Source: Rickettsia typhi
GTDB lineage: Bacteria > Pseudomonadota > Alphaproteobacteria > Rickettsiales > UBA1997
Reading direction: 5' to 3'
Assembly (NCBI GenBank): GCA_945906835.1
Contig: CAMDRL010000006.1
Location: 1-22,163 of the forward strand
DNA length: 22,163 nucleotides
Shown one piece after another: positions 5,299 to 22,020 of this stretch. The notes beneath the pieces are model-generated. The model saw only the letters and a program-made list of their open reading frames with translations, did not search any database and was not told the origin of the DNA. Each line of letters starts with the position of its first letter. Position 1 is the stretch's first letter. The position numbers and the translations under genes are program-made.

Positions 5299-6411
5299 AT
5301 GGATTTTTTTAAGGCAGATAAAAAACCTCAAGATACTAAAATTGTCGTCGCCATGTCTGGTGGCGTTGATTCTTCCGTTGTTGCCTGTTTGTTAAAAGAA
5401 CAAGGTTTCAATGTGGTGGGCATTACTTTGCAGCTTTATGATATGGGCGAAGCCTTGAAAAAGAAGAATGCTTGCTGCGCTGGTATTGATATTATGGATG
5501 CAAAAAAAGTTGCACAAAAATTTGATTTCCCGCATTATGTTTTGAATTACCAAAATCTCTTTAAAGAATCTGTAATTGATGATTTCGCTGATAGTTATTT
5601 GAAGGGCGAAACACCAATTCCTTGTGTAAAATGCAATCAATCTGTGAAGTTTAGAGACTTATTGAAAGTGGCAAAAGACTTGGGCGCAGACGCTATGGCA
5701 ACTGGTCATTATGTTAGAAGAATTGACGGAGAAAATGGCGCGCAGTTGCATAAGGCAATCGATTCCAGTAAAGACCAAAGTTATTTTTTATTCACCACCA
5801 CCAAAGAACAATTAGAATTTTTACATTTTCCTTTAGGTTCAAATACCAAAGAAGAAACCAGAAAAGAAGCAGAAAGATTGGGTTTAGAAATTGCGCAAAA
5901 ACCTGACAGCCAAGATATTTGTTTCGTGCCAAATGGCAATTATTCCGCAGTAATTTCCAAACTTCGTCCAACAGCTTTTAAAGAAGGAAATGTTGTGCAT
6001 TTTGAAACTAAAAAAGTTTTAGGAAAACATAATGGTATAATAAATTTCACTTTAGGGCAAAGACGCGGACTTGGAATTGCTTATCCTGAACCACTTTTTG
6101 TAGTTAAAATTGATCCAAAAGAAAATATAGTTTTTGTTGGTTCAGAAAGTTATTTGCAAAATAAAAGGTTTTTAATGCGTGATTTAAATTGGTTGGCTGA
6201 TGATGTTAAAGAAGGTGATAAAATTCACGCCAAAGTGAGGTTGCGCTCAACTCACAGCGAAGAGGATGCCATCATAAAAATCGGCAAAAATAACGAAGCC
6301 GAAGTAACCATGCACTCCCCAACCAGAGCCATCACACCAGGGCAAGCTTGCGTGATTTACCAAGATTCCAGAGTTTTAGGTGGCGGGTGGATTACAAAGG
6401 AAGTTCAGTAA
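5299..6411 (+). CDS. mnmA: tRNA-specific 2-thiouridylase MnmA
   Basis: MnmA (TrmU) adenylates and then thiolates U34 of tRNA(Lys/Glu/Gln) in the cytoplasm, using sulfur relayed from a cysteine desulfurase. The 370-residue product has the ATP-binding PP-loop SGGVDSS (20-26), the catalytic Cys112 in CVKCNQSVKF, the second catalytic Cys208 in DSQDICFV, and the LGQRRGLGI (252-260) and C-terminal ARAITPGQACV-like segments. The start ATG fits the family N-terminus. It is a single gene divergent from gltA and followed by a large inverted-repeat element rather than a neighbour in an operon. The call is secure. Confidence 0.97.
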   Translation: MDFFKADKKPQDTKIVVAMSGGVDSSVVACLLKEQGFNVVGITLQLYDMGEALKKKNACCAGIDIMDAKKVAQKFDFPHYVLNYQNLFKESVIDDFADSYLKGETPIPCVKCNQSVKFRDLLKVAKDLGADAMATGHYVRRIDGENGAQLHKAIDSSKDQSYFLFTTTKEQLEFLHFPLGSNTKEETRKEAERLGLEIAQKPDSQDICFVPNGNYSAVISKLRPTAFKEGNVVHFETKKVLGKHNGIINFTLGQRRGLGIAYPEPLFVVKIDPKENIVFVGSESYLQNKRFLMRDLNWLADDVKEGDKIHAKVRLRSTHSEEDAIIKIGKNNEAEVTMHSPTRAITPGQACVIYQDSRVLGGGWITKEVQ

Positions 6412-6435: not shown

Positions 6436-6655
6436 GTTAACTAACTATAGATTTAATATAAATCACCCTCCCCTAGTTTTTGTTTTTTGGGGAGAGTCGA
6501 TGAACAATCGTAGCTTGTGAATCAGGGAGGGGCAATCTTGTCAAAATCTCAATCTTTTTGACCCCTCATCGAATCGCTTCGCTCTTCGATCCTCCCCAAA
6601 AAACAAAAACTAGAGGAGGATTATTTAAACCGAACTCTGTCTATAGTTAGTTAAC
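6436..6655. repeat. Nested inverted-repeat element, MITE-like
   Basis: The outermost perfect 15-nt arms are GTTAACTAACTATAG (6436-6450) and its complement at 6641-6655. Inside, a second pair of arms of about 34 nt (6467-6500 against 6586-6619) pairs with few mismatches and includes a CTAGTTTTTGTTTTTTGGGGAG-like core. An inner GAGGGGC...GACCCCTC palindrome and a CGCTTCG hairpin lie in the middle. The element fills most of the 420-nt gap between mnmA and the HAD-UbiA gene. The remaining part, 6656-6831, is AT-rich with no gene I can support. No ORF is inside, so a MITE or a composite of nested palindromes fits best. Confidence 0.65.
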
Positions 6656-6831: not shown

Positions 6832-8265
6832 ATGCCTAACTCAAAAAATATATCGCTAGTTGTTGATCTGGATGGCACACTAATTCACTCAGATTTGCTG
6901 CATGAATCGCTATTTGCTTTTGTTTTAAAAAATCCGACTTCGATATTTTTGCCATTTAAATGGCTTGCCAAAGGTAAACCAAATTTGAAAAAGCATTTGG
7001 CGCAAGTAACCGAAATTGATGTTGCAAATTTGCCTTACGATCAACGCGTAATTAAGTTAATTAAATCTGAGCGTCAGAAAGGTAGAAAAATTATTTTAGC
7101 CACCTCAAGTCACATCGTTTATGCTAAACAAATTGCCGAGCATTTAAAACTTTTTGACTATGTTTTTGCCACCGAAAGTGATATTAACTTATCGGCACAA
7201 AATAAGTGTGACAAGCTGGTAAAAGAGTTTGGCGAAGGCGGCTTTGATTATGCCGGGAATTCTTGTGATGACCTAGCTGTGTGGAAAAAATCAAGAGCGG
7301 CGATTGTTGTAAATGCTAGTAAATGCTTGGTTAAAAAAGCACAAGCTCTTGGCAATGTTGAACAAATTATTCCTTTTCCAAAAAATATTTTCAAAGTTTG
7401 GGCTAAGGCGCTTCGCCTGCACCAATGGGTAAAAAATTGTCTTATTTTTGTACCACTGCTTGCAAGTCATGAGTTGGGACAAGATGATCTTTTGTTTAAC
7501 GGAGCATTGGCGTTTTTATTTTTTGGCTGTTGCGCCTCTCATGTTTATTTATTTAACGATTTGGTTGATTTAAAAAACGACAGACATCATGCCACTAAGC
7601 GATTTCGTCCTCTTGCTTCAGGGCTAATTTCTGCCACATCATCCTTGACGATGAGTTTTGTTTTATTATTGATTGCATTTGTGGGTTCGTTTTACTTTTT
7701 ACCACCGCGGTTTGGTCTGTCTTTGGTTATTTATTGCATTTTAACCCTTACCTATTCATTAGTTTTTAAGCGCTTAGTAATGCTTGATATTGTTATCTTA
7801 GCAGTACTTTACACTATGAGAATTATTGCTGGTGCTTTTGTTTTTGACAAACCGCTAACTTTTTGGATGTTGGCTTTTTCAATGTTTATTTTCTTGAGTT
7901 TATCTTTAGTTAAACGCTACGCTGAGCTTTATGATCAAAGGGCGCAAAGCGGAAAAGAAAAAACTAACGCTCGTGGATATCTTCTGGGTGATTTAGAAAT
8001 GTTGTCATCGTTTGGAGCTTCTTCAGGTTATTTATCAGTAATGATTTTGGCACTTTATTTGCAAGATGAGTTGACAATTTCGCTTTATTCTCACCCACAA
8101 ATTATTTGGTTTGCTTGCCCGCTTTTACTTTATTGGATTAGTCGAGTTTGGATGCTAACCCATCGTGGACAAATACATGACGACCCAGTGGTTTTTGCTA
8201 TTAAAGACAAAGTAAGTTGGCTTATTGGAGTAATGATGGCAGTAGTTTTTTGGCTAGCAATATGA
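6832..8265 (+). CDS. HAD phosphatase-UbiA prenyltransferase fusion, DPPR-synthase-like
   Basis: This predicted bifunctional membrane enzyme would attach phosphoribose from PRPP to polyprenyl phosphate (DPPR synthase, as Rv3806c/UbiA of mycobacteria) and perhaps remove the 5-phosphate. It has 477 residues from ATG 6832; an earlier TTG at 6787 lacks family support. The N-terminal HAD domain (about 1-180) has DLDGTL (12-17), an ATSSH segment (90-94) and DYAGNSCDD (139-147). The C-terminal part (about 185-477) is UbiA, with NDLVDLKNDRHHATKRFRPLASG around 242-264, whose ND-D-D and KRFRP pattern is that of DPPR synthases, then KRYAEL (361-366), DDPVVFAIKD (450-459) and about nine membrane segments. 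Its stop overlaps the DprE1-like start in ATGA. The UbiA assignment is firm; the phosphatase role is inferred. Confidence 0.88.
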   Translation: MPNSKNISLVVDLDGTLIHSDLLHESLFAFVLKNPTSIFLPFKWLAKGKPNLKKHLAQVTEIDVANLPYDQRVIKLIKSERQKGRKIILATSSHIVYAKQIAEHLKLFDYVFATESDINLSAQNKCDKLVKEFGEGGFDYAGNSCDDLAVWKKSRAAIVVNASKCLVKKAQALGNVEQIIPFPKNIFKVWAKALRLHQWVKNCLIFVPLLASHELGQDDLLFNGALAFLFFGCCASHVYLFNDLVDLKNDRHHATKRFRPLASGLISATSSLTMSFVLLLIAFVGSFYFLPPRFGLSLVIYCILTLTYSLVFKRLVMLDIVILAVLYTMRIIAGAFVFDKPLTFWMLAFSMFIFLSLSLVKRYAELYDQRAQSGKEKTNARGYLLGDLEMLSSFGASSGYLSVMILALYLQDELTISLYSHPQIIWFACPLLLYWISRVWMLTHRGQIHDDPVVFAIKDKVSWLIGVMMAVVFWLAI

Positions 8266-9560
8266 TAGTAAAATCATGGGGAAATTATCCACCTCATCAA
8301 CAAATTTCTCACATCACAAATTGGCGCGATAATTTAAGTAACGACTTTTTGGCAATTATAAAAAACCATCAAACCACTTTGCCATTTGGCAATGGTTGCA
8401 GCTACGGTGATAGCTGTATGGCAAGCTCGGGACATGTTTTGCAAACTCGCAATCTCAACCGTTTTATTGAAGTTGATTGGACTTGCGGAATTATCAAAGC
8501 CGAAGCCGGCGTCACTCTCGAAGAAGTTTTAAATTTAAGTATTGTGCAAGGTTGGTTTTTACCAGTGACACCTGGCACAAAATATGTCACTTTGGGTGGC
8601 GCCGTTGCCAACGATGTTCACGGAAAAAACCACCATATTCGCGGTACTTTTGGCTGCCATGTGCAAAGTTTTAGTTTGTTGCGCAGCAATCAAAAATTGC
8701 TCATTTGTTCACCGCAAGAAAATGCTAATTTATTTAACGCCACAATTGGCGGGCTTGGTCTTACGGGAATTATTGAATGGGTTGAAATTAAGCTTATGCC
8801 GATTGCTTCAAGCTTAATTGATTCAACCACAATTCGCTTTGATTCAATTGACGAATTTTTTGATCTTTCAAACGAGTTGGACGCCGCAAATGAATATAGC
8901 GTTGCTTGGATTGACTGCCTACAAGTTGGGCGTGGAGTTTTTTTTGTTGGCAATCACGCTAAAAAAGGCGAGCTAAAAGCTAGTCAAAAACCCAAAATCA
9001 CCATGCCAATCACACCGCCATTTTCTTTGATCAATGGGCTGTCGTTAAAATTTTTAAACTCAGCTTACTATAATTTACACAAAAAAAGCAGACAACGAAA
9101 AACTCTAAATTACGATCCATTTTTTTATCCGCTCGATGGCATTTTAAAATGGAACAGAGTTTATGGCAAGAATGGTTTTCAGCAATATCAATGCGTTGTT
9201 CCTGAGCAAAATTCTCGTGCGGCAATTAAAGAAATTTTAAACGAAATTTCGCGCGCTAAGGCGGGCTCTTTTTTGGCTGTGTTAAAGCGCTGCGGTGCAA
9301 TTAAATCTCCCGGACTATTATCTTTTCCACTTCAAGGCATTTCTCTGGCACTAGATTTTGCCCAGCGTGATGAGTTTAATAAAAAATTATTTGAACGCCT
9401 AGATAAAATTTTATGTCAAGCAAATGGACGTCTTTATCCAGCAAAAGACGCTCATATGAGCTCACAAGATTTTAAAAAATTTTATCCTAACTGGCAGTTG
9501 CTAGAAAGCTTGCGCGACCCCGCTTTATCTTCACATTTTTGGAATAGGACTTTGTTATGA
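8262..9560 (+). CDS. dprE1: FAD-linked oxidase, DprE1-like (decaprenylphosphoryl-ribose 2'-oxidase)
   Basis: DprE1 oxidises the 2'-hydroxyl of decaprenylphosphoryl-ribose to a keto intermediate, the first half of epimerisation to D-arabinose. The protein is 432 residues from ATG 8262, which overlaps the upstream stop (ATGA); the longer TTG frame is unlikely. The FAD-binding-4 domain contains PFGNGCSYGD (41-50), TPGTKYVTLGGAVANDVHGK (103-122) running into NHH, and GGLGLTGII (163-171). The C-terminal half carries LLSFPLQG and GRLYPAKD, with Lys395 matching the active-site Lys418 of mycobacterial DprE1. The residue matching Cys387, the covalent inhibitor target there, is Ala363. The next gene again starts within its stop codon, so the three are probably translationally coupled. 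Confidence 0.88.
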   Translation: MIVKSWGNYPPHQQISHITNWRDNLSNDFLAIIKNHQTTLPFGNGCSYGDSCMASSGHVLQTRNLNRFIEVDWTCGIIKAEAGVTLEEVLNLSIVQGWFLPVTPGTKYVTLGGAVANDVHGKNHHIRGTFGCHVQSFSLLRSNQKLLICSPQENANLFNATIGGLGLTGIIEWVEIKLMPIASSLIDSTTIRFDSIDEFFDLSNELDAANEYSVAWIDCLQVGRGVFFVGNHAKKGELKASQKPKITMPITPPFSLINGLSLKFLNSAYYNLHKKSRQRKTLNYDPFFYPLDGILKWNRVYGKNGFQQYQCVVPEQNSRAAIKEILNEISRAKAGSFLAVLKRCGAIKSPGLLSFPLQGISLALDFAQRDEFNKKLFERLDKILCQANGRLYPAKDAHMSSQDFKKFYPNWQLLESLRDPALSSHFWNRTLL

Positions 9561-11169
9561 AAAAAATATTTTTGATTAAGGTCAAATCAATTGAAGATTT
9601 TTTTGAAAAAAAAATCGTTTTTACTAGCGCAGCTTTTTTAATTGTAACTAGTCTTTTATTAATAAAGCTTGGCAATCTCTTAGTTGATCAAACGCTCTGG
9701 GGCGAAGATGGACCTATTTTTATTTCTCAATCTCGAGAGCTTGGCGCGCAATCTATATGGAAGGAGCATGCTGGATATTTGAACTTATACCCAAGACTTT
9801 CTTCTTACTTTGCTAGTTTTTTTGACATTGGTTTAACGCCTATAATTTTTTTGATTTTTTGCGGCTTATCTTATACAGCTTTAGTTTATGTTATAATAAA
9901 TAAAGGCACTTTTTTAAAGAAGAGTCGTTTAGAGTCTTTATTGCTAGCAATACTAATTATTTTTCAGCCTCACCGCGATGAGGTATTTTTTAATATAACA
10001 AATGCTCAGTGGTGGATTGGCTCAGCTCTATGTATTTTTGTTTTGGTTTATTTTAATGGTCAAGAAAAAAACAGCCTCTTTAAATCAACAATTATTTTTG
10101 TTGCCTCACTAACTGGACCTTTTTCATTATTTTTGCTTCCACTTTTAGCTTTTAATTTAGTTATTTTGAGAAACTGGCGCGACAGAAAGCTTGTTTATAT
10201 TCCGGTGCTTCTTGGCGCTTTTATACAACTAATTTTTGTTTTGAATTCTCAACGAATTTATAGCGGAGAATGGATTTTTGAAGATCAGTTACAGCATTTA
10301 CTAACTGGCATAAAAACCCTTATTTTTTTGGCAGCGATTTAAAATTATTAAGATTCTTTTCGATAATTTTATGGATAATGATTCTTTCACAATTGATCCG
10401 AGTGGGTATCAATTTTGTAAAGAAAAACAAAAATAATGCACAAAACATACAGGCCATCCTACTTCTTTTTGCGGCCGCATTTTATTATGCCTCACCAATT
10501 TTCCTGCTCATAGTTCCCGCCGAAATATTATCTCCACTTGGATCAGGCGCTCGTTATTTTTTTATAACATATTCGTTAATATTTTTTGCTGCTTGGTTGT
10601 TATTTTCAAATAACAAAGTTTTAAGGATAACTGTTTTGTCGATTATTTTGCTAATTGATTGCCTTAGCAACCCTTTCAAATGGGCTGAGGATAGAGTTAA
10701 TCACCAATTTCAATCTTATGTAGAATTTTCTAAATACAACAAAGATGTAGTGATAAAAAATAATCCTTATGCTATACCAGATGCTTTACATTGGAAAATT
10801 ATTTTACCAAATCGCGAGCTTAAGAAAATTTCAGGCGAAATGGGTTTTGATCTTTCTTGGAAGAAAGATGAGGTCTCAGCTAATTTAGGTCACAGAACTT
10901 TTTTTGTAGAATTATTTGAAAAATGTAACGATTCAAAACATATAGGAATTGAACTTAAAACCAACTCTACAAAAAGCGGGGTATTACAATTAGCTTGGGG
11001 CAATGAAGAGATTTTTTTGACAAAAAATTTTTTAGATGAACAATTTTTCTCTGGAGAGTCAAAAATATATTTTGCCCTTCCATCTTCCAAAGCCAAGCAT
11101 TTGTTACTAAAATCATCCAAAGTCGAAGATGATTTTGAAATAAAATCTACCAAGCTTTACTGCCTTTAG
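9557..11169 (+). pseudogene. Polytopic membrane protein, candidate GT-C glycosyltransferase, frameshifted
   Basis: Two adjacent frames (9557-10342 and the continuation to 11169) form one gene of about 537 residues. Just before the first stop, the other frame reads KNPYFFGSDLKLLRFFS and runs straight into the second part. One missing A in the A-run at about 10312-10316 explains the break. The N-terminal part has about seven hydrophobic segments, an acidic WGEDG (48-52) in the first external loop, HAGYLNLYPR (71-80) and NITNAQWW (146-153). The second part has more membrane segments and a roughly 130-residue soluble tail. An acidic first-loop motif and this topology suit a GT-C enzyme using a lipid-linked sugar, and its place between the DprE1-like and DprE2-like genes suggests an arabinofuranosyltransferase. 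I do not recognise a named family. The frameshift could be real or a sequencing error. Confidence 0.7.
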
Positions 11170-11328
11170 AGCCTGTTCAAGATCTTTTTTAACCTCATAT
11201 TTAGCCCTGTTTTTGCTTATTTTTTAACAAAATTACTCCAAGTATATCCAGATACTTGTCATAATTTTGCTAAAAAAGCGCTAAAAACATGTCAAAATCT
11301 GAGGTTAAAAAAGATCTTAAGCAGGTTC
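11169..11328. mobile_element. 160-bp palindromic MITE, IS5-like ends
   Basis: The 29-nt arms (11169-11197 and 11300-11328) match at 26 positions, starting GAGCCTGTTCAAGATC on the left. The pairing continues imperfectly inward to the centre AAGTATATCCAGATACTT, so the whole element is one long imperfect hairpin. It is flanked by TTA on both sides (11166-11168 and 11329-11331), consistent with a 3-bp target duplication of IS5-type elements. The insertion lies at the stop codon of the membrane-protein gene; deleting it with one TTA copy restores the same TAG. No coding capacity. The IS5 link rests on the look of the ends only. Confidence 0.72.
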
Positions 11329-11370
11329 TTAGAAACTTTATTTTTCCATTTTTAAAAACAGGATTTTGTC

Positions 11371-12111
11371 ATGAAAAAAATATTAATAATTGGTGCCACT
11401 TCAGCAATTGCGAATTCTTGCGCTAAAATTTGGGCCAAAGAAAAAGCTGAATTTTTTTTAGTGGCGCGTGATCAAAGTAAATTGCAGCAAGTAGCAGCAG
11501 ATCTTATGGCACGCCGTGCCACATCAGTCAAAACTCACGCACTTGATCTAAATAAATTCGACGCCCATCAAGAAATGATCAAGGCTAGCTTTAATGCGCT
11601 TGGCAAAATTGATGTTGTGTTAATTGCCCACGGAACTTTGCCAAATCAGAAAAAATGCGAAGTAAATGTTGAATTAGCGCTACAGGAATTTTCAAACAAC
11701 TGCCTAAGTGCAATTGCGATTTTGACCTTGCTTGCAAATAAAATGGAAAAACAAAATTGTGGTACAATCGCAGTAATTTCTTCAATTGCAGGCGATCGCG
11801 GCAGAAGTTCAAATTATCTTTACGGCAGTGCCAAAGCAGCCGTCACAGCCTTTTGTGAAGGATTAAGAGCGAGAATGTTTAAAGTTGGCGTCCATGTTTT
11901 AACCATCAAACCCGGTTTTGTAAATACACCAATGACCAAAGATTTAACCTTGCCACATCTACTGGTAGCATCACCCGAAAAAGTCGCACAAGACATCTGT
12001 AAAGCCATCGAAAAAAAATCAGATTCAATCTACACTCCATTTTTTTGGTGGGGAATTATGACAATCATCAAAGCCATTCCAACCGCAATTTTTAAGAAGC
12101 TAAAATTATGA
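11371..12111 (+). CDS. dprE2: SDR reductase, DprE2-like (decaprenylphosphoryl-2-keto-ribose reductase)
   Basis: DprE2 uses NAD(P)H to reduce the DprE1 keto product to decaprenylphosphoryl-D-arabinose. The 246-residue product is a classical short-chain dehydrogenase: cofactor loop GATSAIA (8-14), an AHG element (86-88) in place of NAG, catalytic Ser137/138, and YGSAK with Tyr151 and Lys155. It is closer to DprE2 than to generic SDRs at SSIAGDRGRSSNYLYGSAK and at the C-terminus, where IKAIPTAIFKKLKL parallels the HIPRSIFRKLPI ending of mycobacterial DprE2. The ATG has AGGA a suitable distance upstream. Without the upstream palindromic insertion it would sit about 40 nt behind the membrane-protein gene. 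Its stop overlaps the ATG of the following pseudogene. Confidence 0.88.
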   Translation: MKKILIIGATSAIANSCAKIWAKEKAEFFLVARDQSKLQQVAADLMARRATSVKTHALDLNKFDAHQEMIKASFNALGKIDVVLIAHGTLPNQKKCEVNVELALQEFSNNCLSAIAILTLLANKMEKQNCGTIAVISSIAGDRGRSSNYLYGSAKAAVTAFCEGLRARMFKVGVHVLTIKPGFVNTPMTKDLTLPHLLVASPEKVAQDICKAIEKKSDSIYTPFFWWGIMTIIKAIPTAIFKKLKL

Positions 12112-12455
12112 AAAATACTTACAACGAAAATTTATTTTCTTATGGAACTTTGCAATATTAAGAAGTTTAGCTTGCCCCTTTCAACCGCAAATTAAAAGGC
12201 TCTAGAGACATACTCCCGAAATACAATCTTTCCAAATTAAAAATTACCGATCTAGAAATTATCAAAAAAAGTGGCAAAGATATTCATCCAGTAATTTTAT
12301 TTACTGGAAATATTAAAGATAAAATTAAAGGCATGGTTTTTGAGGTTTCATCCGATGAATTAAAACAAGCTGATGAATATGAAAAAGCCAATTACAAAAG
12401 AATTTCAATAAAATTATCCTCTGGAATTGATGCTTGGGTTTATGTGAATAAATAA
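12108..12455 (+). pseudogene. Gamma-glutamylcyclotransferase-like (AIG2 family) gene with two in-frame stops
   Basis: One uninterrupted frame of 115 codons from ATG 12108 (overlapping the dprE2 stop) matches the AIG2/GGCT-like family: LFSYGTLQ near the start, then a KLKGSRDIL segment, SGKDIHPVILFTGN, a GMVFEVSSDEL segment, DEYEKANYKRI and GIDAWVYVNK at the end. There are no frameshifts. The only lesions are TAA at 12159 and TAG at 12168, each where relatives usually have Gln (YGTLQxQEVQLA), so each is one C-to-T change from CAA or CAG. This family cleaves gamma-glutamyl amines or peptides, but this copy can make only a 17-residue peptide under the standard code. Confidence 0.82.
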
Positions 12456-12649: not shown

Positions 12650-14068
12650 ATGACACAGCAAAATTTTGACCTAGTAGTAATTGGTGCCGGACCGGGTGGA
12701 TATGTTGCGGCAATTCGCGCAGCGCAACTTGGACTTAAAACAGCTTGCGTGGAAAAAAGGGGAACTCTTGGCGGAACTTGTTTGAATGTTGGGTGCATTC
12801 CCTCAAAAGCTTTACTTGAGATTTCTCATAAATTTCATGATGCAGATCATCAATTTGAAAAATTAGGAATTACAGTTTCTAAACCAAAAATTGATGTTAA
12901 AAAACTTTTGGCTAATAAAAATGAAATCGTTGCTGGATTGACTGGTGGGATTTCTGGCTTGTTTAAGAAAAACAAAGTTACATCAATTGAAGGTGCGGCA
13001 AAATTTTTAGATAAAAATACTATTGAAGTTACTAAAGTTGACGACCAAGAAAACATAACTAAAGAAAAAATTTCTGCGAAGAATTTTATTATCGCAACTG
13101 GTTCAGAAGTTACAAAATTACCGGGCGTTGAAATTGATGAAAAAGTTATCGTTTCTTCAACTGGCGCTTTGGATTTAGAAAAAGTTCCTGGAAAAATGAT
13201 TGTAATTGGCGCAGGCGTAATTGGGCTTGAGCTTGGTTCAGTTTGGGGTCGTTTTGGCGCGGAAATTGAAGTTATTGAATATCTTGACAAAATCACGCCA
13301 GCAATGGACGCAGAAGTTTCTCGCAACTTCCAAAGAATTCTTGAAAAACAAGGTTTCAAATTTCGTCTTTCAACCAAAGTTGTGTCTGTAAAAAAAGATA
13401 AAAATGGCGCAAAAGTTGAGATTGAATCTGTGGCTGATGGTAAAAAAGAAACTTTAACTGCTGATGTAGTTTTAGTGGCAATTGGTCGCCGTCCAAATAC
13501 TGAAAATTTAGGTTTAGAAAATACTGGAATTAAATTAAATGCTCGTGGATTCATTGAAAATAACCACTTGCGCACTTCAGTTGAAAATATTTTCGTAATT
13601 GGCGATGTAACAACTGGCGCCATGCTTGCTCACAAGGCTGAAGACGAAGGAGTTGCTGCCGCAGAAATTATTGCAGGGCAAGCTGGTCATGTAAATTATG
13701 ATGTTATTCCAAATGTAATTTATACTTATCCAGAAATTGCCTCTGTTGGTAAAACTGAAGAAGAATTAAAGGCGGCTGGAATTGCTTATAAAGCTGGGAA
13801 ATTCTCGATGATGGCAAACTCTAGAGCGCGCGCTACTGGTGATGATCAAGGTTTTGTAAAAATTCTTGCTTGCGCCAAAACTGATAGAATTTTAGGTGCG
13901 CATATTATTGGCAGAGAAGCTGGAAATACAATTCATGAAGTGGTTGTGGCAATGGAGTTTGGTGGATCTTCAGAAGACTTAGCAAGAACTTGTCATGCTC
14001 ATCCAACTTATAATGAAGCGGTTAAAGAAGCTGCTATGGCAGTTGAGAAGAGACAGATTCATAGTTAG
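12650..14068 (+). CDS. lpd: Dihydrolipoyl dehydrogenase (E3)
   Basis: E3 is the FAD-dependent component that reoxidises dihydrolipoamide in pyruvate, 2-oxoglutarate and related dehydrogenase complexes, passing electrons to NAD. The 472-residue product has the FAD dinucleotide motif GAGPGG (12-17), the redox-active disulfide GGTCLNVGC (Cys44, Cys49), an NAD-binding IGAGVIGLELG segment, the second FAD motif FVIGDVTTGAMLAHKAEDEG, and the dimer-interface catalytic pair in HAHPTYNEA (His451, Glu456). It is full length and begins at a plain ATG. It stands alone, with no E1 or E2 genes beside it. The DUF3800 gene follows 42 nt later. Confidence 0.97.
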   Translation: MTQQNFDLVVIGAGPGGYVAAIRAAQLGLKTACVEKRGTLGGTCLNVGCIPSKALLEISHKFHDADHQFEKLGITVSKPKIDVKKLLANKNEIVAGLTGGISGLFKKNKVTSIEGAAKFLDKNTIEVTKVDDQENITKEKISAKNFIIATGSEVTKLPGVEIDEKVIVSSTGALDLEKVPGKMIVIGAGVIGLELGSVWGRFGAEIEVIEYLDKITPAMDAEVSRNFQRILEKQGFKFRLSTKVVSVKKDKNGAKVEIESVADGKKETLTADVVLVAIGRRPNTENLGLENTGIKLNARGFIENNHLRTSVENIFVIGDVTTGAMLAHKAEDEGVAAAEIIAGQAGHVNYDVIPNVIYTYPEIASVGKTEEELKAAGIAYKAGKFSMMANSRARATGDDQGFVKILACAKTDRILGAHIIGREAGNTIHEVVVAMEFGGSSEDLARTCHAHPTYNEAVKEAAMAVEKRQIHS

Positions 14069-14110: not shown

Positions 14111-14760
14111 ATGTGGCATCTATATCTTGATGAAAGTGGCGATCTTGGATTCGATTTTGTAAATAAAAAACCATCAAAATTCTTTAACGTCACAATTCTT
14201 GCAGTTAGTAGTGAAGAAAGAAATAAAGCACTTATTAGCGCAACAAAAAAAGTTATTAGAAAAAAATTAAATCCAAAAAATAAAAATAAAATTCATGAAT
14301 TAAAAGGGTCTCAAACAACTCTAGAGATCAAAAAATATTTTTACAAACAAGTTAAAGAAATAAAATTTGGCATTTATTCAATAACCCTTAATAAAAAGCG
14401 ACTCTACAACGATCTAAGTAGGAATAAAGATAGGGTTTATAATTTTATCGCCAGACAAGTAATTTATCAAATTCCTTTCGAAAAATTTAATGATAATGCT
14501 ATTGATCTAATTGTAGATAGGTCTAAAGGAAAGCCAGAAATTTCTGATTTTAATTTTTATATCAAAGGACAGCTGGAAGCAAAAATAACACCAAAAATTC
14601 CGATCAATATTTTCGTCACCTTAAATCTCATGAAAACCATGGATTGCAGGCTTGTGATTTATTTTCTCATGGTATTTTTCTTAAGCATGAACGAGATAAA
14701 AACGAATGGAGAGAAATCTTTTGTAGCAATATTCTTTACGACAAAATTTATCTAGGGTAA
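14111..14760 (+). pseudogene. DUF3800 family protein, frameshifted near the C-terminus
   Basis: DUF3800 proteins are RNase H-fold-like proteins of unclear function, often found in mobile or defence neighbourhoods. The N-terminus MWHLYLDESGDLGFDF carries the diagnostic YLDESGD acidic motif (residues 5-11). From about codon 167 the original frame turns into unrelated sequence, while the adjacent frame gives FRHLKSHENHGLQACDLFSH and continues to ILYDKIYLG and a TAA at 14758, the expected DUF3800 C-terminus with H-x-x-S and LQ-x-x-D. Adding one T to the T-run at about 14610-14613 restores a product of about 216 residues. It follows lpd at 42 nt with no clear Shine-Dalgarno. Genuine loss and sequencing error cannot be separated here. 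Confidence 0.8.
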
Positions 14761-14770
14761 ATGAGAATGG

Positions 14771-14850
14771 AAGTGCCTTATAAGCTCTATAATAGCCTAA
14801 ACTCTTGCCAACCGATGGATGGGAACATTTAGAGCAACTTATAAGGACTT
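14771..14850. other. Imperfect hairpin downstream of the DUF3800 gene
   Basis: AAGTGCCTTATAAGCTCT (14771-14788) pairs with AGAGCAACTTATAAGGACTT (14831-14850) as stems of 4, 9 and 4 bp separated by small bulges, with a loop of about 42 nt. It has no T-run, no recognisable SRP, tmRNA or 6S features, and no ORF. The rest of the 14761-15009 gap shows nothing I can name. Confidence 0.3.
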
Positions 14851-15009
14851 ACCTTGATTTACAAGTTAGTTTTTGTTGCAAAATAAACAAGCCCTAATTT
14901 TGGTAGTCACAAATGCCAGCTTAAAGACAAATTATAGAACGCCCCACAACACTCACAACCCCAAAATAACAATGCTAAAAAATCTACATGATTTCTAATT
15001 TCAATAAAC

Positions 15010-20386: not shown

Positions 20387-21313
20387 TTATTGTAGAGCAA
20401 TTCCCCATTTTTTAGAAAGATATTTTTCAACATATAATATTTCCTCATTTTTTAAACCACTATTGTAAAATATCACTTCTGAAAGATAGAATTCGGGGGT
20501 ATTTTGAATATTATATTGCCAACCCATCTGAAATCGAAGAGTTTGTCCTAAATCTAACGGACTTGAAATTTGTCTTTGGGCAAATGGATTTAAAGATTTG
20601 CCGTTGCTTTTTGCACTTAAGGTTCCATCAGTTTTTAATCTTATTGATATCAAGATCGGAACTTTATCGATGTTGGAAAGCATCCTAAAACTATTATCAG
20701 CTGTATTTTTATCTATTCCCCAGTATGTTACCGCTAGCGTTAAAATATTAGAATAAGTACCAAAATATAAATTAATTCTAGATGAGTTGCTATTAGCAGC
20801 CATAGTAACGAATCTTTGAGTACCTTCATTAAAGGGACCTTTCATAATTAAAACAAAAAACATAGTCAGTTGGTTATTTTTAAAAATCTCACCAAAATTT
20901 GTTACTCCTGCTAGATAGTCATTAATTCCGTCAAATTTTATTGTAGGTAGACCATTTAAGCCATTTTTAATGTAAAGTGGATCATTTGTTGCAGCAGCAT
21001 TTATGAAAGACGGCGCATTTCCAGATCTTCTTGGATTGGCATTATTCCATGTTTTAATTGGGTCATTATTTTGAATATCAGTTTTTCCACTACGGTTAAT
21101 GAGAGAGGAGTTGGAATTTGCTCTTGTGGCATCAAGCCACAAAGTCATTTCTTTTATTGATTCTATCCCAGAGGTTTTGGTTAAATTTTTAGCAGCGGCA
21201 AGCTTGAATTCATAAATCATATTTGAAGCTTGTGTGACGCCTGCTATTAAGATTCCAATTACCAAAATTACAATTGATAACTCAATAAGAGAGAAAGCTT
21301 TTGATTGCTTCAT
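20387..21313 (-). CDS. Type IV pseudopilin-like protein with LamG/ConA-like domain
   Basis: The 308-residue product starts with a prepilin-type leader: six residues (MKQSKA), then FSLIELSIVILVIGILIAGV, with Phe at +1 and Glu at +5 of the mature form and a single hydrophobic helix (about 7-28). The residue before the cleavage site is Ala rather than the usual Gly, which prepilin peptidases may still accept. From about residue 55 the chain looks like a LamG/concanavalin-like jellyroll: MTLWLDATRAN, KNGLNGLPTIKFDGINDYL (133-151 region), and a C-terminal LSEVIFYNSGLKNEEILYVE followed by KYLSKKWGI. Such proteins are exported and may sit at the tip of a pilus or pseudopilus. It is alone, with no other pilus genes here, and has no clear Shine-Dalgarno. 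Confidence 0.82.
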   Translation of the reverse strand: MKQSKAFSLIELSIVILVIGILIAGVTQASNMIYEFKLAAAKNLTKTSGIESIKEMTLWLDATRANSNSSLINRSGKTDIQNNDPIKTWNNANPRRSGNAPSFINAAATNDPLYIKNGLNGLPTIKFDGINDYLAGVTNFGEIFKNNQLTMFFVLIMKGPFNEGTQRFVTMAANSNSSRINLYFGTYSNILTLAVTYWGIDKNTADNSFRMLSNIDKVPILISIRLKTDGTLSAKSNGKSLNPFAQRQISSPLDLGQTLRFQMGWQYNIQNTPEFYLSEVIFYNSGLKNEEILYVEKYLSKKWGIALQ

Positions 21314-21450: not shown

Positions 21451-22020
21451 GTGGCACAAGTTTTACATGCACGCGCTACGACTTCGATTACCATTAGAAA
21501 AAAAATTCAACAATCTAAAAAGAGCGTATCTGAAATAGCTTGAGAATTTAACATTAGACACTGTTAGCTAATTGCAAAACTGCGATGAAGTGGAAAAAGA
21601 GGGACGATGTTCTTGATCTTCCTTTTGGCTCAAAAAAGCTTAGAACTGTTCTAACTGATATTGAGCAGCAAGCTATTTGCATCTTCCGTAAAAGCACAAA
21701 TCATTCTCTGGATGATTGCTTCATTGTCTTAGAAGAAACAATCCCAAATTTAAGCCGCAACAATCTTCACAGATGTTTAAAAAGGAATAGACTTAGTGTT
21801 TTAGCGAAAGAAGACCCAAAAACTTCCTCTTGCTAATAAACAAAAGTTTAAACATACGAGATTGGATATCTTCACATAGATATCACTGAAGTAAATCTTG
21901 AAAACAATCCTAAATTCTATCTCTTCGTTGCTATTGACAGAGTCAGTAAAATGGCAATTGCAAGACTTTATAAAAACCAGACAACAAAAAACTCAATTAA
22001 GTTTCTAAAGGAAGTAATAC
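21451..22020 (+). pseudogene. IS481-family transposase, degraded and truncated
   Basis: Read across frames, the sequence follows an IS481 transposase: AQVLHARATTSITIRKKIQQ from GTG 21451, SVSEIA-stop-EFNI, then KWKKRDDVLDLPFGSKK (from 21585), SLDDCFIVLEETIPNLSRNN, and, after two more frame changes near 21828 and 21860, GYLHIDITEVNLENNPKFYL then FVAIDRVSKMAIARLY. It contains one nonsense codon (TGA at 21541), a 14-bp insertion at 21560-21573 in the helix-turn-helix region, and two single-base deletions. The first catalytic Asp (HIDITEV) is present; the second Asp and the Glu are lost because the gene breaks off at KFLKEVI, where a palindromic element begins. It cannot be active. Confidence 0.85.
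21560..21573. repeat. 14-bp dispersed motif ACTGTTAGCTAATT, copy 2, inside the IS481 gene
   Basis: Removing exactly these 14 nt rejoins the transposase in frame as EFNIRRKTAMKWKKR, matching the INQKTVAKWKKR pattern of the family. The motif is therefore an insertion, not original coding sequence. The exact register may slide by a base or two. Confidence 0.65.

What the first reader, a model, noticed from the sequence alone, without database searches (positions are those of the whole stretch)
6832..12111. Predicted decaprenylphosphoryl-D-arabinose donor cassette in a Rickettsiales-like genome
A UbiA with the KRFRP pattern of DPPR synthase, a DprE1-like FAD oxidase with VHGKNHH and AKD motifs, and a DprE2-like SDR with the characteristic C-terminus lie in one plus-strand cassette, with a polytopic membrane protein among them. 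The first three starts overlap the preceding stops as ATGA. These are the steps that make the lipid-linked D-arabinofuranose donor known from mycobacterial cell walls and from arabinosylation of some Gram-negative surface molecules. In this kind of alphaproteobacterium the acceptor is unknown and would be a new surface decoration.
Basis: partly seen in the sequence, partly recalled or inferred. Interest (0 to 1): 0.75.

Follow-up and report, generated by a model that had tools for sequence, protein, structure and literature searches.

The report
Arabinose-donor gene cassette in Rickettsiales relative
A bacterium that looks like a relative of the Rickettsiales carries an acquired set of genes predicted to build a lipid-linked form of the rare sugar D-arabinofuranose and attach it to a still unknown surface molecule; the pathway is known from other bacteria, and I found no report of it in this group.

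Summary
Window 6832-12111 encodes a HAD phosphatase fused to a UbiA phosphoribosyltransferase, a DprE1-like oxidase, a membrane protein and a DprE2-like reductase. The fusion has the domain order of Citrobacter youngae ORF15, shown to make polyprenyl-P-ribofuranose (PMC11127046); the DprE1/E2-like pair would convert this to the D-arabinofuranose donor. The membrane protein, split here over two frames, belongs to a ~550-aa family without Pfam match; an intact homologue models as a GT-C glycosyltransferase with a carbohydrate-binding module, so it is a candidate arabinosyltransferase. 38 of 43 loci fetched with the UbiA protein hold all three donor genes. The nearest held genome shares the window's gene order but has no cassette between mnmA and lpd and carries its triad elsewhere. 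In that genome's order, 2 of 262 genomes have this HAD-UbiA type; 16 others have a DprE1 relative. Trees join window and relative, apart from that second type: horizontal transfer, donor unresolved. A palindrome repeated in several family genomes lies inside the cassette, against contamination. Acceptor, flippase and activity are untested; 'Rickettsiales' is inferred.

The parts
6832..8265 (+). HAD phosphatase domain (Pfam match to residues 10-117) fused to a UbiA-type polyprenyl-phosphate phosphoribosyltransferase (solved relative matches 182-466)
   Evidence: NF006088 633.6 bits (cut-off 351), PF01040, PF12710; 8j8j E 1.2e-29; motif positions
8262..9560 (+). DprE1-like FAD oxidase (polyprenylphosphoryl-ribose 2'-oxidase, predicted)
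   Evidence: NF053785 324.9 bits, below its cut-off of 500 (which was given 8217-9560); solved DprE1 E 2.2e-59; tree
9557..10342 (+). N-terminal half of a predicted GT-C membrane glycosyltransferase; the frame changes near 10.32 kb
   Evidence: aligned with 21 homologues in A1; an intact homologue (L035) models with pLDDT 86.4 and a GT-C fold
10378..11169 (+). C-terminal half of the same gene (last membrane helices and C-terminal beta-sandwich), in another frame
11165..11335 (.). Palindrome inside the cassette (78-nt arms, 79% complementary), a repeat element of the host lineage
   Evidence: inverted repeat I1; matches in 13 of 48 family genomes, full-length at 83-88% in five of them; none in G001
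11371..12111 (+). DprE2-like SDR reductase (2'-keto intermediate to arabinose, predicted)
   Evidence: NF005489 354.4 bits (cut-off 267); NF053786 (DprE2) 185.2 bits, below its cut-off of 250; 21gq_C E 1.8e-30
12108..12455 (+). Broken gamma-glutamylcyclotransferase-like (GGACT) remnant; its start overlaps the DprE2 stop
   Evidence: three-frame translation; PF06094 E 1.4e-7 on the open stretch 12201-12455
6459..6627 (.). Inverted repeat between mnmA and the cassette
   Evidence: I3, 45-nt arms, 87% complementary; only short partial matches, in 2 of 48 family genomes
5299..6411 (+). mnmA, left flank of the insertion site
   Evidence: in the relative L080 the mnmA and lpd frames are 80 bases apart, with no cassette
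12650..14068 (+). lpd, right flank of the insertion site
   Evidence: 88% identical in L080

Best explanation
The cassette is a horizontally acquired, extracytoplasmic D-arabinofuranosylation module. The UbiA domain moves 5-phosphoribose from PRPP to a polyprenyl phosphate (expected to be undecaprenyl-P); the fused HAD domain removes the 5-phosphate; the DprE1-like oxidase and DprE2-like reductase invert C2, giving polyprenyl-P-D-arabinofuranose. A flippase encoded elsewhere carries it across the membrane, and the GT-C protein with its C-terminal carbohydrate-binding module transfers arabinofuranose to a periplasmic or surface acceptor. Shown here: gene content, order, domain make-up, conserved residues, co-conservation, predicted fold of an intact homologue, insertion site, phylogeny. 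Shown by others for an architecturally matching fusion (C. youngae ORF15): the transferase and phosphatase steps. Inferred: all activities in this organism, the arabinose identity, the flippase, the acceptor, and whether the split GT-C gene still works.
Against: Three curated cut-offs are not met: NF053785 325 of 500, NF053786 185 of 250, NF008978 156 of 207, so the enzymes are relatives of the mycobacterial ones, not members of those models. The GT-C gene is split. No flippase gene was found in the window, while G001 has a GtrA gene beside its triad. Only 2 of 43 loci hold a detectable relative of this GT-C protein, and G001's neighbouring membrane protein shows no similarity to it, so its tie to the triad rests on few cases. 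Foldseek by itself did not list GT-C enzymes among its best 50. The organism's own genome is not held.
Confidence: 0.8

Rival explanations
1. The cassette is decaying: the donor enzymes remain open but the GT-C gene is broken, so no arabinosylation occurs unless another transferase takes over.
For: One gene lies in two frames; the next gene downstream (GGACT) is also broken; a repeat element sits between GT-C and DprE2.
Against: Both GT-C pieces are otherwise open, and the C-terminal half still aligns with the family's conserved RY segment; a single frame change can be a sequencing or assembly error or be bypassed; the HAD-UbiA gene is kept in a 13-row clade of diverged relatives.
Confidence: 0.25
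2. The product is another lipid-linked pentofuranose (ribose itself or an isomer), with the oxidase/reductase pair acting on something else.
For: ORF12 of C. youngae uses ribose or xylose donors and related systems carry another epimerase; DprE1 and DprE2 curated cut-offs are not met.
Against: Both halves of the DprE1/DprE2 pair lie in the cassette and are best matched among solved structures to DprE1 and DprE2; Kelly 2024 reports DprE1/E2 homologues in the candidate systems of Araf-containing glycans.
Confidence: 0.1
3. The stretch is a contaminant or a chimeric contig, the cassette coming from another bacterium.
For: The trees place the enzymes among copies of other classes and phyla; the relatives G001 and G248 have no cassette at this site.
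Against: Cassette GC 0.357 against 0.333 for the flanking sequence, and 0.61 in the Pseudomonas locus L035; a palindrome repeated in several genomes of this family lies inside the cassette, although G001 itself has no match to it; the UbiA and DprE1 proteins are sisters of those of G001, which shares the window's gene order.
Confidence: 0.03

Closest known systems
Three-component pentofuranose addition, Citrobacter youngae O1/O2 (ORF15/14/12, GT136; Kelly 2024, PMC11127046)
   Same: N-terminal HAD phosphatase fused to a C-terminal UbiA phosphoribosyltransferase; GT-C transferase with a carbohydrate-binding module; the paper reports DprE1/E2 homologues in the Araf variants.
   Different: Here DprE1/E2-like genes are in the cassette, no MATE flippase was found in the window, and membership of the GT-C protein in GT136 was not testable.
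D-arabinofuranose pilin glycosylation, Pseudomonas paraeruginosa PA7/Pa5196 (TfpW; PMC12369383)
   Same: Gram-negative D-Araf pathway on a genomic island, with an oligosaccharyltransferase (TfpW, named a GT-C arabinosyltransferase in a cited title).
   Different: According to Kelly 2024 the P. aeruginosa PPPRS has no fused phosphatase domain; the acceptor there is a type IV pilin, here it is unknown. Sequences were not compared.
Azorhizobium caulinodans noeCHOP (PMC2443382)
   Same: Alphaproteobacterial genes; noeC, noeH and noeO proposed, from similarity to mycobacterial proteins, to make a D-arabinose precursor.
   Different: Acceptor is the Nod factor; the sequences were not compared here.
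Mycobacterial DPA pathway (Rv3806c, Rv3807c, DprE1, DprE2, Emb/Aft)
   Same: Predicted order of reactions; homologous UbiA, DprE1, DprE2; AftB/AftA among the fold matches of the GT-C homologue.
   Different: Phosphatase unrelated (HAD here); undecaprenyl-P rather than decaprenyl-P expected; NCBIfam cut-offs for the mycobacterial-type models not met.

Membership tests
Three-component pentofuranose system, Araf variant (Kelly 2024) | Polyprenyl phosphoribose synthase, here with fused HAD phosphatase as in ORF15 | tested here: met
   NF006088 633.6 bits over 351; PF12710 and PF01040; counterparts, by motif spacing, of the mutated residues
Three-component pentofuranose system, Araf variant (Kelly 2024) | DprE1/DprE2 homologues for arabinose | tested here: met
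   homology E 2.2e-59 and 1.8e-30 to solved enzymes
Three-component pentofuranose system, Araf variant (Kelly 2024) | GT-C glycosyltransferase | tested here: inconclusive
   intact homologue models as GT-C; the window's own copy is split over two frames
Three-component pentofuranose system, Araf variant (Kelly 2024) | Flippase (MATE, or SMR-type as in mycobacteria) in the system | tested here: inconclusive
   no match of the G001 GtrA protein in the window; no MATE search was run; own genome not held; G001 has GtrA next to its triad
NCBIfam NF053785 (DprE1 equivalog) | score over 500 bits | tested here: not met
   324.9 bits
NCBIfam NF053786 (DprE2 equivalog) | score over 250 bits | tested here: not met
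   185.2 bits
NCBIfam NF008978 (decaprenyl-phosphate phosphoribosyltransferase) | score over 207 bits | tested here: not met
   156.2 bits
NCBIfam NF006088 and NF005489 | scores over 351 and 267 bits | tested here: met
   633.6 and 354.4 bits
GT136 | sequence similarity to C. youngae ORF12 | not tested
   ORF12 sequence not fetched; no Pfam or NCBIfam match of the window pieces at E 0.001

The most novel reading that the evidence does not exclude
A host-associated lineage of the Rickettsiales decorates members of its expanded pilin-like, N-methylation-motif surface proteins (8-13 motif matches in each of four genomes searched) with D-arabinofuranose through an acquired lipid-donor pathway and a GT-C/CBM transferase family without a Pfam model. 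The transferase genes differ between carriers, so acceptors could switch while the donor module stays.
Probability: 0.12. Interest if true: 0.7.

Novelty: new member of a known kind. Interest (0 to 1): 0.42.

Why it matters
D-arabinofuranose is best known from mycobacteria (general knowledge). A donor pathway acquired in a Rickettsiales-like family, plus DprE1 relatives of a second type in 16 of 262 sampled genomes of the order, would make arabinosylated surface molecules a recurring feature of these alphaproteobacteria and give a sugar marker to look for. The GT-C plus carbohydrate-binding-module family found with it has no Pfam match.

Tried and rejected
Rejected: contamination (GC, family palindrome, sister copies in G001). 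Rejected: ordinary 4-hydroxybenzoate or haem-o UbiA (28 bits each against 156 for DPPR synthase). Rejected: another kind of FAD oxidase (other NCBIfam models at most 48 bits against 325 for DprE1; Pfam ALO 20 bits, below its cut-off).

Dropped claim: that the donor was a gammaproteobacterium. The DprE1 tree puts window and G001 next to the Pseudomonas citronellolis group (support 86), but the UbiA trees do not: there the pair falls near Verrucomicrobia and Chlorobiaceae copies (83) or in an open group with Nitrospira, Gallionellaceae and unnamed proteins (97*). The donor is unresolved.

Led nowhere: structure of the 577-aa membrane protein beside the G001 triad (single sequence, pLDDT 41.7, unusable); hhalign of it and of the 770-aa L035 protein against the window's GT-C family (probability 3.0% and 0.2%). 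Viral contigs gave no relative. The search with the N-terminal half could not list relatives over about 457 aa because of the tool's length limits; the longer query gave P0016, the nearest intact homologue among the proteins compared (40% to the N half, 28% to the C half). TfpW was not compared. Foldseek alone listed mostly carbohydrate-binding modules and some unrelated chains; the GT-C match comes from the second look. Searches for print on the palindrome (listing only) and on pilin with laminin G (0 papers) were not pursued.

Counts with rows dropped: the DprE1 tree (52 rows) holds 13 of the 18 genomes with DprE1; short or duplicate loci were left out by hand. The tree (72 rows) keeps rows over 400 aa of the earlier set plus 30 of the 120 proteins listed. 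The three trees are quick searches without bootstrap. G050's cassette contig (5.5 kb, GC 0.59 against 0.55-0.56 for two other contigs) may be a contaminant, and G050 is not in the window's clade. In one search at most 17 candidates a genome were scored, and both strands of one place count as rows.
Full report
What is there. The plus strand of 6832-12111 holds four genes, one of them lying in two open frames. The first protein (477 aa) is a fusion: an N-terminal HAD phosphatase domain (PF12710) and a C-terminal UbiA domain (PF01040). It scores 633.6 bits against NF006088 (cut-off 351), and scores far higher against decaprenyl-phosphate phosphoribosyltransferase models (156 bits for the best) than against 4-hydroxybenzoate or haem-o transferases (28 bits each). 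The solved phosphoribosyltransferase 8j8j matches residues 182-466 at E 1.2e-29. The second is a DprE1-like oxidase (E 2.2e-59 to solved DprE1) and the last a DprE2-like reductase (E 1.8e-30 to 21gq_C). Three stricter NCBIfam cut-offs are not met (DprE1 325 of 500, DprE2 185 of 250, NF008978 156 of 207), so I speak of DprE1-like and DprE2-like enzymes.

How it would work. Kelly and colleagues (PMC11127046; I read the abstract, passages, Results section 7 and part 1 of 2 of the Discussion) showed that ORF15 of Citrobacter youngae, with the same HAD-UbiA order, makes farnesyl-P-ribofuranose from PRPP, that changing its loop-I aspartate leaves mainly the 5-phosphate form, and that N247, D248, D251 and D255 matter for activity while R366 and E369 are largely dispensable. 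By motif spacing the window protein has counterparts at D12, at N242, D243, D246, D250, and at R362 and E365. They report DprE1/E2 homologues in candidate systems of glycans that contain arabinofuranose. So the cassette should make polyprenyl-P-D-arabinofuranose, and the GT-C protein should hand the sugar to an acceptor after flipping. PRPP synthase is present in 4 of 4 tested genomes and UppS in 3 of 4; the nearest relative has both. No flippase was recognised in the window.

Conservation. A scan of genome contigs with the UbiA protein gave 43 loci, some from the same genome: 38 hold UbiA, DprE1 and DprE2 relatives, 35 in this order on one strand; of the other five, two hold only a short stretch similar to the HAD part (E 3e-4) and three hold part of the set, two of these on contigs of about 4-5 kb and one at a contig end. 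They come from Pseudomonas, Chlorobiaceae, Nitrospira, Burkholderiales and others. The FAD amine-oxidase-like gene beside the G001 triad has relatives in 21 of the 43 loci and its GtrA gene in 19 (both counts include L004, G001's own locus), while relatives of the window's GT-C gene were found in 2 of 43: a constant donor set with a changing transferase. The protein search found at least 7082 HAD-UbiA relatives at E 1e-100 or better and listed 120, the nearest apart from the window's own being P0032 at 84% and P0033 at 79%.

Host and insertion. Locus L004 lies in genome G001, titled 'Alphaproteobacteria bacterium isolate C8_D7_3'. G001 has the window's order of ffh, alr, lpd, mnmA, gltA, virB4 and gatB (Ffh 78%, Lpd 88%, GltA 85%, VirB4 54%), but there the mnmA and lpd frames are 80 bases apart. 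Its own triad is on another contig, beside a 577-aa membrane protein without similarity to the window's GT-C, an amine-oxidase-like gene and GtrA. In G248 the slot between lpd and mnmA holds a nucleotidyltransferase/HepT pair; in G221 the region next to mnmA holds an LRR gene and, by my reading of the sequence, a secA gene. The slot is variable. That the order is Rickettsiales is my inference from genome size, two VirB4 genes and the gene order; no record says so.

Distribution in that order. Of 262 genomes, 2 have a HAD-UbiA over the cut-off (G001 and G050, the latter possibly a contaminant contig); in the family 1 of 61. DprE1 relatives at E 1e-30 or better occur in 18 of 262: G001, G050 and 16 others. 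A stand-alone UbiA of 137-184 bits to NF006088 is listed for 17 genomes; 14 of these are among the 16, three are not, and two of the 16 lack it. Of the 16, I read 11 at length around the UbiA gene: in 6 DprE1, DprE2 and UbiA lie close together, in 5 they do not. Six stand-alone UbiA proteins that I scanned all score best against a decaprenyl-phosphate phosphoribosyltransferase model, one of them over a cut-off (two of the six are from genomes without DprE1). In the DprE1 tree the 11 sampled copies of this second type form their own clade (100*), while window and G001 are sisters (99*). In the UbiA tree with 30 added proteins, window, G001 and P0032-P0042 form one 13-row clade (100*); the hosts of P0032-P0042 are not known to me. 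So the order holds at least two separate arabinose-donor sets, and the window's type is an established clade, not a single oddity. Which group gave it is unresolved: the DprE1 tree points to the P. citronellolis group (86), the UbiA trees do not.

Not contamination. The palindrome at 11165-11335 lies inside the cassette; 13 of 48 family genomes match it, four of them with 15 or more rows (G095 35, G163 26, G055 22, G174 15; rows count both strands of one place), and five have copies at 83-88% over most of its length; G001 has none. GC of the cassette (0.357) is close to that of the flanking sequence (0.333) and far from the Pseudomonas locus (0.61).

Acceptor. Unknown. Wzy_C (O-antigen ligase/polymerase family) was not found in G001, G248 or G221 but was in G050, which gives no support for an O-antigen acceptor in the close relatives. 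Pilin-like proteins with the N-methylation motif number 8-13 matches in each of four genomes. The window has such a protein at 20387-21313, and G248 has one (28% identical) in the same neighbourhood. Pilin is a known D-Araf acceptor in P. paraeruginosa (PMC12369383, passages). This is a lead only: G248 and G221 have these proteins and no HAD-UbiA over the cut-off.

Print. Searches of the open-licence PMC library for Rickettsiales with arabinofuranose (1 paper, by its title and abstract on lignocellulose degradation in woodlice), with DprE1 (0), with arabinosyltransferase (0), and Rickettsia with decaprenylphosphoryl (1, the Azorhizobium genome) found no report of this pathway in the group. Subscription papers and preprints are not covered. 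The Azorhizobium paper (PMC2443382, passages) proposes noeC, noeH and noeO for a D-arabinose precursor, so the pathway is not new to alphaproteobacteria.

Verdict. A real, well-supported D-arabinofuranose donor cassette with a candidate GT-C transferase, horizontally acquired in a Rickettsiales-like family. New member of a known kind; the lineage and the unclassified transferase family are the new parts.

Noticed in passing
window 11165-11335: Palindromic repeat (about 170 bp) found in 13 of 48 family genomes, up to 35 match rows in one 1.4-Mb genome; its nature and mobility are unexplored.
   Followed up: partly
window 20387-21313; L117 201-1133: Pilin-like protein (N-methylation motif) of about 300 aa with a 28% identical protein in the same neighbourhood of G248; 8-13 such motif matches in each of four genomes, a multigene family of unknown role.
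   Followed up: partly
window 14764-14863 (minus) and 14111-14755: DUF3800-V RNA (RF02964, 55.6 bits) beside a DUF3800 gene.
   Followed up: no
Genomes G007, G008, G010, G013, G024, G051 and ten others of the order: DprE1 relatives of a second type in 16 of 262 genomes, 14 of them with a stand-alone DPPR-synthase-like UbiA; sampled copies form a separate tree clade; a PMT_2 protein lies in the G051 set and an unclassified membrane-protein-sized gene in the G007 set.
   Followed up: partly
L079 4403-5698 and relatives: FAD amine-oxidase-like enzyme, 61-68% identical in 20 loci besides G001's own and found with the arabinose triad; no role known to me.
   Followed up: no
window 21585-21836: Fragment similar to an IS481-type transposase (35.9 bits, below the model's cut-off).
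   Followed up: no
mnmA-lpd slot in G248 (L117 8089-9089) and mnmA neighbourhood in G221 (L113 156-5676): Nucleotidyltransferase/HepT pair, and an LRR gene with a gene that I read as secA, where the window has the cassette: a variable slot.
   Followed up: partly
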